From Bordetella petrii (GTDB lineage: Bacteria > Pseudomonadota > Gammaproteobacteria > Burkholderiales > Burkholderiaceae_B): 64,000 bases of DNA. How positions within the stretch are numbered: position 1 is the stretch's first letter; every line of letters begins with the position of its first letter. The stretch lies in assembly GCA_017745595.1 (NCBI GenBank), contig WMBV01000020.1:1-64000 (forward strand), in the 5' to 3' direction. The translations under genes were made by a program, and so were the position numbers. Under the pieces are notes generated by a model. It was given only the letters and a program-made list of their open reading frames with translations. It was not told where the DNA came from and ran no database searches. Of the stretch, positions 49,427 to 53,667 are shown piece after piece.

Positions 49427-49789
49427 TTATTCGCCGATCAAGAAGCTCTCGCGGCTGTTGCCCTGGGCTTCTTCGGCGGTGAGCCAGCGCGGCGCTTTGC
49501 CGCGGCCGCTCCAGGTTTCGCCGGTTTTGGGATGGCGGTACTTGGGCGCTACCTGCCGTTTGGCCGCTGGCGCGGCTTTGCGGCCGGCGCCGGCGCGCGA
49601 CGTTTTCCCCGATCCGCCCAGGGCGGCGGCGATTTCCTCGGGGGTAATATTGTATTCGCGCATTGAAGCCACAATGGATGCAATAACCGGCTTGCGGCGT
49701 TTGGTTTGCAGGGCTTCAGCCTTTTTTTGCAATTTGTTTATTTCTTTTTCTATTTTCGCCTGGAGCGCAGAGTAGTTTTCACGGGGCAT
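49427..49789 (-). CDS. H-NS family nucleoid-associated protein
   Basis: A 120-residue H-NS-like protein. The N-terminal coiled coil (about 5-35, KIEKEINKLQKKAEALQ) mediates oligomerisation, and the C-terminal DNA-binding domain has KYRHPKTGETWSGRGKAPRWL (about 83-103), the betaproteobacterial H-NS/BpH3 signature. Between them is an Ala/Gly/Lys linker. The ATG preceded by AGGA is chosen over a TTG two codons upstream. The promoter region shared with the nitrilase gene is AT-rich, which would suit self-silencing. Confidence 0.9.
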   Translation of the reverse strand: MPRENYSALQAKIEKEINKLQKKAEALQTKRRKPVIASIVASMREYNITPEEIAAALGGSGKTSRAGAGRKAAPAAKRQVAPKYRHPKTGETWSGRGKAPRWLTAEEAQGNSRESFLIGE

Positions 49790-49926
49790 GGGCAAGTCCT
49801 GATAATAATAAACGCGGTCTGGTGCGGTAATTTGGCCAATAGATGGCCGTGCTTGTCATAATACATAAATTGCCCAGCCGATTCATTATTTTGAGCGAAA
49901 TTTGTCACTTTCAAAAAGGTCGAAAA
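49790..49926. promoter_or_regulatory. AT-rich divergent promoter region (H-NS-like / nitrilase genes)
   Basis: About 137 bases with much higher A+T than the surroundings. TATTAT on the minus strand and CATAAT (49856-49861) on the plus strand are candidate -10 hexamers; a TTGGCC lies 19 bases before the latter. H-NS-type proteins prefer such DNA, so autoregulation is plausible but unproven. Confidence 0.4.
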
Positions 49927-50758: not shown

Positions 50759-52219
50759 ATGAACCTGATCGATCCCGATATTCAATCGCTGGCCACGGCC
50801 AAATCGCTGCTGCTCGACCCCTGGGGCCTGACCGAAGCCGACATGGCTCGCGCGCTGGGCGAAATCTTCACCCACAAGGTCGATTACGCCGACCTGTATT
50901 TCCAGTACACGCGCAGCGAGGGCTGGAGCCTCGAAGAAGGCATCGTCAAGACCGGCAGTTTTTCTATCGGGCAGGGCGTGGGGGTGCGCGCCATCAGCGG
51001 CGAAAAAACCGCCTTCGCCTATTCCGATTCGCTTTCGCCCGAGGCGCTGTTGTCGTCGGCGCACGCGGTGCGCGGCATTGCGCGCCGGGGCGCGGGCAAG
51101 GTCAAAGTGGCGGCCCAGGTGCCGCCCGAGGCCGGCCGCAGCCTGTATGCCGACCTCGATCCGCTGGCCACGCTGAGCGCGCCCGAAAAAGTCGCCCTGC
51201 TCGAACGGCTCGAACGCATGGCGCGGGCGCGCGATCCGCATGTCATCCAGGTCATGGCTGGCCTGGGCGCCGAGTACGACGTCGTGCTGGTGGCGGGCAG
51301 CGACGGCCGCCTGGCAGCCGACGTGCGCCCGCTGGTGCGCCTGTCGCTCACCGTCATCGCCGAGCGCAACGGGCGCCGCGAAATGGGCCACGCGGGCGGC
51401 GGCGGCCGCCTGGGGCTGGCGTATTTTTCGGACGAGATGCTGCAAGGCTACGTCGAGCGGGCCGTGCACGAGGCCATGGTGAATCTCGACGCCCGGCCGG
51501 CGCCGGCGGGCGAAATGACCGTGGTGCTGGGCTCGGGCTGGCCCGGCATCCTGTTGCACGAAGCCGTGGGCCACGGCCTGGAAGGCGACTTCAACCGCAA
51601 GGGGTCCAGCGTATTTTCCGGCCGCATGGGCGAGCGCGTCGCCTCCAAGGGCGTTACCGTCATCGACGATGGCACGCTGCCCGACCGCCGCGGCTCGCTG
51701 AACATCGACGACGAGGGCAATGCCACGCAGCGCAACGTGCTGATCGAAGACGGCATCCTGCGCGGCTACATGCAAGACACGCTCAATGCGCGCCTGATGA
51801 AAACCGCCGCCACCGGCAACGGACGGCGCGAATCCTTTGCCCATCTGCCCATGCCGCGCATGACCAACACTTATATGCTGGCGGGGCAGACGCCGCCCGA
51901 AGAAATCATCGCTTCGGTCAAGCATGGCCTTTACGCGGCCAACTTCGGCGGCGGCCAGGTCGACATCACCAACGGCAAGTTCGTGTTTTCGGCCTCCGAG
52001 GCCTACATGATCGAAAACGGCAAGATCACTTACCCGGTCAAGGGAGCCACGCTCATCGGCAACGGCCCCGATGCCATGAACCGCGTCAGCCTGATCGGCA
52101 ACGACCTGCAGCTCGATTCGGGCGTGGGCACCTGCGGCAAAGACGGGCAAAGCGTGCCGGTGGGCGTAGGCATGCCGACGGTGCGCATGGACGGGCTGAC
52201 CGTCGGCGGCACAGCCTGA
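50759..52219 (+). CDS. tldD: metalloprotease TldD
   Basis: Subunit of the TldD/TldE (PmbA) heterodimeric metalloprotease that degrades unfolded peptides and matures some modified peptides such as microcin B17. The metal-binding HEAVGH (267-272) that marks TldD is present, with the [21 protein letters not shown] context. Length is 486 residues. The partner pmbA is not in the window. Nitrilase-tldD adjacency is common in betaproteobacteria. Confidence 0.95.
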
Positions 52220-52225
52220 TTGGCC

Positions 52226-52333
52226 AGGTGTCAGGCTCCGCAGGTGCCTGACACCGTTGCGTACGAACGGCAGAGCATCGGTGTCTGACACCCTGCGGGA
52301 GCCAGACACCTGCAAAATCGAAGCCGGACACCT
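52226..52333. repeat. palindromic repeat cluster 7
   Basis: Elements at 52226-52255 (GGTGTCAGGC/GCCTGACACC) and 52280-52311 (GGTGTCTGAC/GCCAGACACC, one mismatch), plus a half element CCGGACACCT at 52324-52333. It lies between tldD and the aroG attenuator, two co-directional units. Confidence 0.92.
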
Positions 52334-52384
52334 GAAAATCTGCTTCAGGCGGCCGAGACCCGCTGCGCGGCAAGAAAGTTCGCC

Positions 52385-52413
52385 TTGGCGGCCGTGTTGT
52401 TTTGTGCTAGAGT
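52385..52413 (+). promoter_or_regulatory. putative aroG promoter
   Basis: TTGGCG (52385-52390), 17-base spacer, and TAGAGT (52408-52413) preceded by TGC (extended -10). A start seven bases later would fall at the leader ATG itself (52422), so the leader could be translated from a leaderless or nearly leaderless mRNA; no good ribosome binding site precedes that ATG. Confidence 0.5.
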
Positions 52414-52421
52414 TTCTCGTC

Positions 52422-52505
52422 ATGAAATTCGCGTCCCCCGCTTTTTATTTTTATTTTTTTGGTTTTCTGAAGCCGCTGGCGGAGGAAGGGACGCGCTCAA
52501 TCTGA
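52422..52505 (+). CDS. aroG leader peptide (Phe/Tyr-rich)
   Basis: A 27-codon ORF reading MKFASPAFYFYFFGFLKPLA then EEGTRSI. Six Phe and two Tyr codons occur in residues 3-15, including FYFYFF at 8-13, a density seen only in attenuator leaders such as PheL. It ends 21 bases before a strong terminator and 89 bases before the aroG start codon. Its role would be to sense charged tRNA-Phe and tRNA-Tyr by ribosome stalling; the peptide itself is probably not functional. Confidence 0.85.
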   Translation: MKFASPAFYFYFFGFLKPLAEEGTRSI

Positions 52506-52556
52506 AGTTAGTACAGAATCCCTCGAAAAAGCCGCCAGCCCCCTGGCGGCTTTTTT
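52430..52556 (+). promoter_or_regulatory. aromatic amino acid attenuator of aroG
   Basis: Alternative helices are visible. A protector pairs 52430-52437 (CGCGTCCC) with 52488-52495 (GGGACGCG), enclosing the aromatic codons. An antiterminator pairs 52475-52482 (GCTGGCGG) with 52532-52539 (CCGCCAGC). The terminator pairs 52531-52538 (GCCGCCAG) with 52543-52550 (CTGGCGGC), loop CCCC, then six T. Antiterminator and terminator are mutually exclusive. A ribosome stalled on the FYFYFF codons would block the protector and leave 52475-52482 free, letting aroG be read. Confidence 0.82.
52526..52556 (+). terminator. attenuator terminator upstream of aroG
   Basis: Perfect stem AAAAAGCCGCCAG with CTGGCGGCTTTTTT, four-base loop, T run. 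Because it lies between a promoter and the aroG start with no completed gene before it other than the leader, it is a regulated terminator. Confidence 0.93.
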
Positions 52557-52593
52557 GTGCCGTCAGCCTGGCGGGCAACCCAGGAGCTACACC

Positions 52594-53667
52594 GTGTCGC
52601 ACAATACCGACGACCTTCGCATCCGCGAAATCAAAGAACTGAACCCGCCTTCGCATGTGATGCGCGAATTCCCGTGCACCCAGCAGGCATCCGAAACCGT
52701 ATTCGCCGCGCGCCAGGGCATGCATCGCATCCTGCATGGCATGGACGACCGCCTGATCGTGATCATCGGGCCGTGTTCCATCCACGACACCAAGGCCGCC
52801 CTGGAATACGCCACCCGCCTCAAGCCGGTGCGCGAACGCCTGCAAGGCGAGCTCGAAATCGTGATGCGGGTGTACTTCGAGAAGCCGCGCACCACGGTGG
52901 GCTGGAAGGGATTGATCAACGATCCCGGGCTCGACGGCAGCTTCGACATCAACCGCGGCATCCGCGTGGCGCGCGAACTGCTGCTCGACATCAACAGCCA
53001 GGGGCTGCCGGCCGGCTGCGAGTTCCTGGACATGATCACCCCCCAATACATCGCCGACCTGGTTTCCTGGGGAGCCATCGGGGCGCGCACGACCGAAAGC
53101 CAGGTTCACCGCGAGCTGGCTTCCGGGCTGTCGTGCCCGGTCGGCTTCAAGAACGGCACCGACGGCAACGTCAAGATCGCCGTCGATGCCATCAAGGCGG
53201 CTTCGCAGCCCCATCATTTCTTGTCGGTGACCAAGGGCGGGCATTCCGCCATCGTGTCCACGGCCGGCAACGAAGACTGCCACGTGATCCTGCGCGGCGG
53301 CAAGGCGCCCAACTATGACGCCGCCAGCGTGTCGGCCGCCTGCCAGGACATGGCCAAGTCGGGCCTGGCGCAGCGCGTCATGATCGACGCCAGCCACGCC
53401 AACAGCAGCAAGAAGCCCGAGAACCAGCCGCTGGTAATCGACGACGTGGCGCGCCAGATCGAGGCCGGCGATGCGCGCATCGTGGGCGTCATGGTCGAAA
53501 GCCACCTGCTGGGCGGGCGCCAGGACATGGTGCCGGGCGAGCCGCTGGTATACGGGCAGAGCATCACCGATGGATGTATCGACTGGGACGCCTCGGTGCA
53601 GGTGCTCGAGCGCCTGGCGCGGGCCATCAAAGAACGCCGCCGCGCGGCCGCGACGGCGGGAAAGTAG
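52594..53667 (+). CDS. aroG: 3-deoxy-7-phosphoheptulonate (DAHP) synthase, class I
   Basis: First step of the shikimate pathway, joining phosphoenolpyruvate and erythrose 4-phosphate. The 357-residue protein is of the AroF/AroG/AroH type I-alpha class: IGPCSIHD (metal-binding Cys), VYFEKPRTTVGWKGLINDP, GARTTESQ, and IDASHANSSK with its metal ligands. The start is GTG (VSHNTDDLRIREIKEL) behind a CAGGAG site. Transcription is probably controlled by the upstream Phe/Tyr attenuator, consistent with a Phe- or Tyr-regulated isozyme. Confidence 0.95.
   Translation: MSHNTDDLRIREIKELNPPSHVMREFPCTQQASETVFAARQGMHRILHGMDDRLIVIIGPCSIHDTKAALEYATRLKPVRERLQGELEIVMRVYFEKPRTTVGWKGLINDPGLDGSFDINRGIRVARELLLDINSQGLPAGCEFLDMITPQYIADLVSWGAIGARTTESQVHRELASGLSCPVGFKNGTDGNVKIAVDAIKAASQPHHFLSVTKGGHSAIVSTAGNEDCHVILRGGKAPNYDAASVSAACQDMAKSGLAQRVMIDASHANSSKKPENQPLVIDDVARQIEAGDARIVGVMVESHLLGGRQDMVPGEPLVYGQSITDGCIDWDASVQVLERLARAIKERRRAAATAGK

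What the first reader, a model, noticed from the sequence alone, without database searches (positions are those of the whole stretch)
52385..52594. Complete Phe/Tyr leader-peptide attenuator in front of DAHP synthase (aroG)
A 27-codon ORF with six Phe and two Tyr codons in residues 3-15 is followed by a perfect GCCGCCAG/CTGGCGGC terminator with a T6 tail, and then by aroG. An 8-base antiterminator partner (52475-52482 with 52532-52539) and an 8-base protector helix (52430-52437 with 52488-52495) are perfect complements. This is the architecture of classical ribosome-mediated attenuation, here applied to the entry step of aromatic synthesis rather than to pheA or trpE. E. coli aroG is controlled by TyrR instead, so this is a different regulatory solution.
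Basis: partly seen in the sequence, partly recalled or inferred. Interest (0 to 1): 0.8.

Follow-up and report, generated by a model that had tools for sequence, protein, structure and literature searches.

The report
Aromatic-sensing leader switch before aroG
Just before the gene for the first enzyme of aromatic amino acid synthesis lies a tiny phenylalanine- and tyrosine-rich gene plus an RNA stop signal that together should raise the enzyme when those amino acids run short, and related bacteria of several groups keep the same device.

Summary
Window 52422-52505 encodes MKFASPAFYFYFFGFLKPLAEEGTRSI; a terminator (52531-52550, T6) follows, then aroG (GTG 52594). A Phe/Tyr(/Trp)-rich ATG leader plus terminator precedes aroG in 103 of 114 loci of the same family and 58 of 80 named loci, among them Burkholderiaceae, Oxalobacteraceae, Xanthomonadales and rhizobia. 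The detector fires on 160 of 193 upstreams, 2 of 193 reverse complements, 1 of 193 aroG 5' ends. Protector, antiterminator and terminator arms fit their own mates better than swapped ones within the family (n=56, 0 of 5000 permutations); in the small alpha and Xanthomonadales sets the first two helices show no significant signal.

Not unprecedented: C. glutamicum aroR-aroF is a reported Phe-responsive attenuator at a DAHP synthase, and others are predicted (Acholeplasma, Vibrio, Shewanella). New member of a known kind; no expression data.

The parts
52385..52390 (+). Weak -35-like hexamer TTGGCG, 17 nt before the -10
   Evidence: Sequence; 4 of 6 to the recalled consensus; the consensus scanner reported no promoter here, so low confidence
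52405..52413 (+). Extended -10 element TGC-TAGAGT, ending 8 nt before the leader ATG; suggests transcription start at about 52419-52422 (leaderless or nearly so)
   Evidence: Best -10-like hexamer ends 5-10 nt before the leader ATG in 86 of 95 distinct family leaders, 8 of 9 Xanthomonadales, 11 of 14 alpha (shuffles 13-15%), 0 of 12 Burkholderiaceae-type, 0 of 12 Oxalobacteraceae. The start site itself is inferred
52422..52505 (+). Leader peptide ORF, MKFASPAFYFYFFGFLKPLAEEGTRSI
   Evidence: leader plus terminator in 103 of 114 family loci; frame kept
52443..52466 (+). Control codons: Phe 8, Tyr 9, Phe 10, Tyr 11, Phe 12, Phe 13, Gly 14, Phe 15
   Evidence: Sequence; in 95 non-redundant relatives 517 of 570 codons of the best 6-codon block are Phe, Tyr or Trp
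52430..52442 (+). Segment 1, 5' arm of the protector helix
   Evidence: Minimum-energy fold; partner swaps; pair 52433-52492 seen as GC 14, TA 3, AT 2, broken 2
52475..52495 (+). Segment 2: antiterminator arm 52475-52482 and protector arm 52478-52482 plus 52488-52495
   Evidence: partner swaps; segment 3 keeps bases that fit segment 2 but not segment 4 in 32 of 85 loci
52531..52539 (+). Segment 3: shared by antiterminator (52532-52539) and terminator (52531-52538)
   Evidence: CCGCC invariant in the 46 aligned leaders
52543..52556 (+). Segment 4 of the terminator, CTGGCGGC, and T6 tail (52551-52556)
   Evidence: hairpin -24.1 kcal/mol
52582..52586 (+). Shine-Dalgarno AGGAG of aroG
   Evidence: Sequence; SD-like 4-mer within 20 nt of the aroG start in 95 of 95 family loci examined
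52594..53667 (+). aroG, DAHP synthase (3-deoxy-7-phosphoheptulonate synthase), GTG start
   Evidence: NCBIfam NF006723 AroG 591.9 bits over cut-off 568, TIGR00034 543.7 over 173.2; Phe-regulated DAHP synthase chains among the best PDB sequence matches

Best explanation
A ribosome-mediated transcription attenuator that sets aroG expression by the supply of charged Phe- and Tyr-tRNA. Shown by comparison: a conserved aromatic-codon ORF, competing RNA helices and an intrinsic terminator before this DAHP synthase gene (loci were gathered by aroG; in the own genome a model of the leader finds no second full copy). Inferred: transcription starts within about 3 nt of the leader AUG and ribosomes read the leader without a Shine-Dalgarno. 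With enough Phe and Tyr the ribosome keeps up; segment 2 is covered by it or re-paired with segment 1, the terminator (3:4) forms and an RNA of about 135 nt ends near 52556. When Phe or Tyr is short the ribosome waits around codons 8-13 and covers segment 1, segment 2 pairs with segment 3, and RNA polymerase goes on into aroG. A ribosome that never starts leaves 1:2 intact and termination on. In other lineages Trp codons are part of the block, so all three end products may be read.
For: Leader plus terminator before aroG in 103 of 114 family loci and 58 of 80 named loci; detector on 193 reverse complements 2, on 193 aroG 5' ends 1. Reading frame: the ATG-to-segment-2 distance falls in one frame in 75 of 95 while the stop-to-terminator distance is even over frames, 34/32/29; 91% of block codons are aromatic in frame 0 against 37% and 33% in the others (block picked in frame 0). 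Partner swaps, 56 non-redundant family leaders: z -11.2 (1:2), -6.2 (2:3), -9.1 (3:4), 0 of 5000 permutations each. Antiterminator better than shuffles in 68 of 95. Compensatory pair 52433-52492. In 32 of 85 loci two bases of segment 3 fit segment 2 but not segment 4, the reverse in 5: the antiterminator seems kept for its own sake. Phe is TTT in 80% of family leader Phe codons against 29% in aroG of the same loci. The 58%-identical aroG paralogue in the same genome lacks the leader.
Against: No expression data. Partner-swap signal for 1:2 and 2:3 is not significant in the small alpha (n=9: 1058 and 2533 of 5000) and Xanthomonadales (n=7: 421 and 1084 of 5000) sets. RNAalifold on the 46-row cross-class alignment finds only the terminator, with one compensatory pair. 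The protector beats shuffles at 5% in only 28 of 95. The window's own antiterminator is borderline. Many of the 32 loci are kin, so few independent events. The slide control favours a structure taken from one of its rows. Variable codon positions in the closest group do not favour third positions. Geometry: with a recalled footprint of about 15 nt each side, a ribosome at the stop codon would not cover 52475-52482, so the termination state must rely on ribosomes still in codons 18-24 or on helix 1:2.
Confidence: 0.9

Rival explanations
1. An ordinary intergenic terminator after tldD, with a chance U-rich ORF in front of it.
For: tldD ends at 52219 on the same strand, so a terminator here would not be odd.
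Against: The terminator lies 312 nt past tldD, behind a promoter-like stretch; aromatic ORF in 159 of 193 upstreams against 11 of 965 shuffles; frame and partner conservation.
Confidence: 0.03
2. A nascent-peptide arrest switch: the peptide itself (FYFYFF...PLAEEG) stalls the ribosome in response to a ligand, rather than empty codons doing so.
For: A PLAEEG-like tail recurs in many lineages.
Against: The tail differs between lineages (SNSNPKAVE, PLADREG, SSLAAGGSRSI) while its RNA mostly keeps GGCGG or GGTGG complementary to segment 3; Phe, Tyr and Trp replace each other within the block.
Confidence: 0.04
3. Constitutive premature termination: terminator used, leader translated, but no real response to Phe or Tyr because other controls (enzyme feedback) dominate.
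For: No expression data exist here; AroG-type enzymes are feedback inhibited (recalled).
Against: Aromatic codons are kept through Phe/Tyr/Trp exchange and segment 3 keeps bases for the antiterminator that the terminator does not use.
Confidence: 0.04
4. In addition to attenuation, the terminated leader RNA or its peptide acts in trans, as rnTrpL and peTrpL do in Sinorhizobium meliloti. (Not exclusive of the best explanation.)
For: Same short, apparently leaderless attenuator RNA layout as rnTrpL (passage in PMC10117765); strong sequence conservation of the terminator core.
Against: The conservation can be explained by segment 3 having two partners; no target was sought here.
Confidence: 0.08

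Closest known systems
aroR-aroF attenuator of Corynebacterium glutamicum (Neshat et al. 2014, seen only as described in passages of PMC11802643; prediction in passages of PMC4046766)
   Same: Leader peptide with Phe-Tyr-Phe before a DAHP synthase gene; expression rises on Phe limitation; ribosome stalling model.
   Different: Actinobacterial, operon containing aroF; three neighbouring aromatic residues are named; Tyr availability had no effect there. No sequence comparison with it was made here.
uORFC-13-1 motif before aroF in Acholeplasma (PMC8632094, one section read whole)
   Same: Predicted Phe-reading uORF next to a terminator before a DAHP synthase gene.
   Different: Found only in Acholeplasma and sequences of unknown organisms; consensus has an RBS; another phylum.
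Putative attenuators at other proteobacterial DAHP synthase operons: aroAI-alpha_Y-tyrA in Vibrio (PMC1173090 Table 7, passages) and aroF in Shewanella and E. coli (PMC2659441, passages; hypothesis credited there to Camakaris 1980)
   Same: Attenuation proposed at a DAHP synthase gene in gammaproteobacteria.
   Different: Other paralogue, in operon with tyrA; Tyr-reading proposed; Vibrionaceae and enterobacterial rows here (L066, L073, L070, L076) did not show this leader plus terminator.
Phe_leader, Rfam RF01859 (pheL-pheA attenuator of enterobacteria, target recalled)
   Same: Phe leader peptide with attenuator; highest-scoring Rfam model in bits over the region (23.2).
   Different: Far below its gathering score of 55; by E-value another chance match (RF00223, 0.0016) ranks first.
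trp attenuator rnTrpL of Sinorhizobium meliloti (passages in PMC10117765)
   Same: Leaderless attenuator mRNA starting at the AUG of the leader.
   Different: Trp codons (recalled), trpE target.
trpE leader in the same genome (L208 1213-1287, ...SWRWWRLSSGWR, with a terminator-like hairpin and T run)
   Same: Same genome also seems to use a codon-reading leader for the Trp branch.
   Different: Three Trp in the core, no Phe or Tyr block; so Trp and Phe/Tyr appear to be read at different genes here.

Membership tests
Ribosome-mediated transcription attenuator | Short translated leader ORF with codons for the pathway's product | tested here: met
   6 Phe, 2 Tyr of 27; conserved in frame in relatives. 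Translation itself not shown
Ribosome-mediated transcription attenuator | Intrinsic terminator between leader and gene | tested here: met
   with leader in 103 of 114 family loci. Termination itself not shown
Ribosome-mediated transcription attenuator | Antiterminator exclusive with the terminator | tested here: met
   Shared segment 3; swaps and segment-3 asymmetry; not significant in alpha and Xanthomonadales subsets
Ribosome-mediated transcription attenuator | Protector helix exclusive with the antiterminator | tested here: met
   weak outside the family
Ribosome-mediated transcription attenuator | Expression depends on amino acid supply and leader translation | not testable with these tools
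   No expression data
Rfam RF01859 Phe_leader | Score at or above the gathering threshold (55 bits) | tested here: not met
   23.2 bits, E 0.12; nothing at gathering threshold in the window
AroG-type DAHP synthase | NCBIfam equivalog cut-off | tested here: met
   NF006723 591.9 bits against 568
Leaderless attenuator mRNA (as rnTrpL) | Transcription start at the leader AUG | tested here: inconclusive
   -10 spacing fits (86 of 95 family leaders against 14% in shuffles) and the window has no SD-like 4-mer before the ATG; 37 of 95 family leaders have one, 34 of them overlapping the -10 hexamer; no start-site mapping

The most novel reading that the evidence does not exclude
A single ancient or mobile 'aroG plus attenuator' cassette, read by leaderless ribosomes in most lineages, was passed between beta-, gamma- (Xanthomonadales) and alpha-proteobacteria as one unit and retuned by swapping Phe, Tyr and Trp codons, so that the codon mix of the leader records which end products the pathway's first enzyme listens to in each lineage.
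Probability: 0.45. Interest if true: 0.6.

Novelty: new member of a known kind. Interest (0 to 1): 0.45.

Why it matters
If true, it gives a concrete, testable rule for how many proteobacteria, among them Bordetella, Burkholderia, Xanthomonas and Bradyrhizobium relatives, control the first step of aromatic synthesis (TyrR-type repressors were not searched for here). Leaders differ in Trp codons between lineages, which predicts which end product derepresses aroG in each. It is also a well-populated natural data set for how an RNA with one segment shared by two helices evolves.

Tried and rejected
Rfam at gathering threshold: nothing in the window. Consensus promoter and terminator scanner: nothing in 52200-52620; the -10 here is 4 of 6 with an extended TG. 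RNAalifold on the cross-class alignment A1 recovered only the terminator; the variable protector region is not well aligned across classes, so helices were tested by partner swaps and on gap-free 27-codon leaders (23 loci, 21 distinct sequences, one of them a Xanthomonas row added by name). Covariance model R1: one full match in the own genome (E 6e-28) and three terminator-only matches (E 0.005-0.02); in 369 genomes of the class 9 matched, the own included, but only 9 candidates per genome were scored and the sample is spread over many families, so this is not used as a frequency. Codon-position test in the closest group (16 leaders) was uninformative: 4, 6 and 7 variable sites at positions 1, 2, 3. 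The F-rich ORF at 49727-49861 overlaps, on the other strand, a lysine-rich ORF (49427-49795) that looks H-NS-like (recalled, no family search) and was set aside. pheA locus in the own genome: no ORF with 5 aromatic in 10 codons.

Rows dropped: L120 (divergent leader with RFYKYGY and terminator) was removed by hand before and so from the swap tests, but counts as positive; rows whose chosen ORF starts with GTG or TTG, rows without a terminator, and exact duplicates were removed (160 rows, 151 distinct; 95 non-redundant). Of 113 family genomes with an aroG match (of 121 searched) three were not fetched (G020, G041, G078). A1 used 46 of the 95. By eye two 'negatives' look like leaders the detector missed (L036, L069) and one like a frameshifted leader (L007); L076 (Entomohabitans) has an aromatic-rich ORF but no terminator found; L063 is too short to judge. 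One search skipped 10 of 95 rows. The -10 scan had no control; one search added one.

Literature: all ten searches used, in a library of open-licence papers only. Passages seen: PMC11802643, PMC4046766, PMC8632094 (and one section whole), PMC1173090, PMC2659441, PMC4448311, PMC10117765, PMC4833913, PMC3110155 (a reference only), PMC12235514. Term look-ups without any hit: PMC2965389, PMC3521395, PMC4035088. In what I saw of these, none names a leader before aroG in the groups studied here; supplements were not open. Lopatovskaya et al. 2010, Vitreschak et al. 2004 and Neshat et al. 2014 were seen as references or second-hand only, so an earlier prediction there is not excluded. PMC1173090 Table 7 (from a database of Merino) lists an attenuator in Bordetella parapertussis before the gyrA-serC-pheA-tyrA cluster; that table covers tyrA-linked operons only.

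Full report
What is there. The window (Bordetella-like: its AroG is 94% identical to that of Bordetella genomosp. 2; own genome 6.1 Mb) carries tldD, then this region, then aroG and two genes that match GlcD models below their cut-offs. The fold of the full leader RNA is protector plus terminator, -49.2 kcal/mol, z -3.05. The protector is larger than described: 52430-52437 with 52488-52495 and 52438-52442 with 52478-52482, so segment 1 directly covers part of the antiterminator arm. If the RNA is cut off before segment 4, the antiterminator 52475-52482 with 52532-52539 forms instead, though those truncated folds are no better than shuffles.

Conservation. With one detector (ORF of 9-45 codons with at least 4 Phe/Tyr/Trp in 10, ATG start, terminator after it) 103 of 114 family loci and 58 of 80 named loci are positive; over the 193 loci with 300 nt or more upstream 160, against 2 reverse complements and 1 aroG 5' end. 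With at least 5 aromatic codons in 10 and no terminator requirement, 159 of 193 against 11 of 965 dinucleotide shuffles. The family negatives are 11 loci, several of them AT-rich; L184 looks like a leader remnant. Negative named rows include those of Rhodocyclales, Ferrovum, Vibrionaceae and enterobacteria, L076 with an aromatic ORF but no terminator found.

Coding and not just U-rich RNA. In 95 non-redundant leaders 517 of 570 codons of the best six-codon block are Phe, Tyr or Trp, where overall base frequencies of the block give 287 and position-specific ones 435 (the block was chosen for aromatic density). Independent of that choice, the distance from ATG to the end of segment 2 stays in one frame in 75 of 95, whereas the distance from stop to terminator is spread evenly over the frames, 34/32/29. 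Phe is written TTT in 418 of 525 family leader codons against 196 of 677 in aroG of the same loci.

Helices. Swapping partners among non-redundant leaders weakens all three helices: all 95, z -10.9, -6.1, -13.2; family only, n=56, z -11.2, -6.2, -9.1, none of 5000 permutations as good. Among the 39 others the signal is weaker (15, 71 and 0 of 5000), and in Xanthomonadales (n=7) and alpha (n=9) it is not significant for 1:2 and 2:3. Swaps do not remove relatedness. On gap-free 27-codon leaders (21 distinct) the protector pairs hold in 237 of 273 cells, against 95 to 139 when the partner is slid by 1 to 3 bases (the structure comes from one of these rows, which favours it), and pair 52433-52492 appears as GC 14, TA 3, AT 2, broken 2. 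Segment 3 keeps two bases that fit segment 2 but not segment 4 in 32 of 85 loci, the reverse in 5, both in 36, neither in 12: this separates antiterminator from terminator, though many of the 32 are kin.

Start of the RNA. The best -10-like hexamer in the 45 nt before the leader ATG ends 5-10 nt from it in 86 of 95 family leaders, 8 of 9 Xanthomonadales and 11 of 14 alpha, against 14%, 13% and 15% in shuffles of the same stretches. It lies 35-39 nt away in 12 Burkholderiaceae-type leaders and at varied distances in 12 Oxalobacteraceae. In the window it is TGC-TAGAGT ending 8 nt before ATG. No SD-like 4-mer precedes the ATG in the Xanthomonadales, alpha, Burkholderiaceae-type or Oxalobacteraceae rows (0 of 9, 14, 12, 12) nor in the window; 37 of 95 family rows have one, and 34 of these overlap the -10 hexamer. 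aroG itself has one in 95 of 95 family rows. So the leader mRNA is probably leaderless in the window's lineage. This is inference from sequence, with rnTrpL of S. meliloti as precedent (passage).

Which amino acids. All 95 distinct family leaders counted contain Phe and Tyr, 14 also Trp; of 56 leaders from elsewhere 40 contain Trp. The window's own genome has a separate Trp leader (SWRWWR) followed by a terminator-like hairpin before trpE, no aromatic-rich ORF at the pheA locus, and no leader at the second DAHP synthase gene. So in the window the entry enzyme seems to listen to Phe and Tyr, and the Trp branch has its own device (inference).

Descent. A quick aroG tree of 93 rows (LG+G4, midpoint root, 31 of 90 inner branches open) puts the 16 alpha rows, 7 of the Xanthomonadales rows and L060 in one branch (SH-aLRT 98) inside a larger group that also holds the Alcaligenaceae rows (86); one Lysobacterales row with a leader (L077) falls elsewhere, next to a long branch. 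Leader presence needs nine changes by parsimony (L036 and L007 are scored there as lacking it). This fits gene and attenuator travelling together, but does not show it.

Mechanism and geometry. Stalling around codons 8-12 covers segment 1 and frees segment 2; that fits. A ribosome at the stop codon sits too far down to mask 52475-52482 by a recalled 15-nt half footprint, so the off state needs either a ribosome still in codons 18-24 when segment 3 emerges or helix 1:2 re-formed behind it. In five Oxalobacteraceae rows the stop lies 4 nt behind segment 2, closer to the trp layout.

Novelty. Attenuation at a DAHP synthase is reported in Corynebacterium glutamicum (aroR; PMC11802643, PMC4046766 passages), predicted in Acholeplasma (PMC8632094), and listed or hypothesised for Vibrio, Shewanella and E. 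coli DAHP synthase genes of another kind (PMC1173090, PMC2659441 passages). No Rfam family takes the window at threshold. The ten paper searches listed in Tried and rejected turned up no description of this aroG leader, but key subscription papers could not be read. I file it as a new member of a known kind with a broad and deep distribution.

Noticed in passing
L208:1213-1287 (own genome, G000 contig C66): Trp leader ORF (...MRNASWRWWRLSSGWR) and a GC-rich hairpin with T run before trpE: probably a second codon-reading attenuator in the same genome.
   Followed up: partly
window 52481-52490: GGAGGAAGGG, a Shine-Dalgarno-like run inside the leader just after the antiterminator arm, recurs in many relatives; could slow the ribosome over segment 2.
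   Followed up: no
L007 (Candidatus Burkholderia humilis): The leader reading frame looks shifted just after the FYFYF block compared with relatives: the switch may be broken there.
   Followed up: no
L165, L180, L181, L184, L186, L187, L190: AT-rich family members in which the detector finds no leader plus terminator; L184 holds what looks like a remnant (MKHALFKQLFFYNQAQYI).
   Followed up: no
L036: Segments 2, 3 and 4 seem changed together to CCGGCGG/CCGCCGG; the detector missed this leader because of a weak T tail.
   Followed up: partly
window 49727-49861: F-rich plus-strand ORF overlapping a lysine-rich, H-NS-like (recalled) minus-strand ORF at 49427-49795; looks like chance.
   Followed up: partly
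G000:C16:5778-5809 (L198, L199): Terminator with a similar core matched by model R1 on both strands elsewhere in the genome, without the leader part.
   Followed up: no
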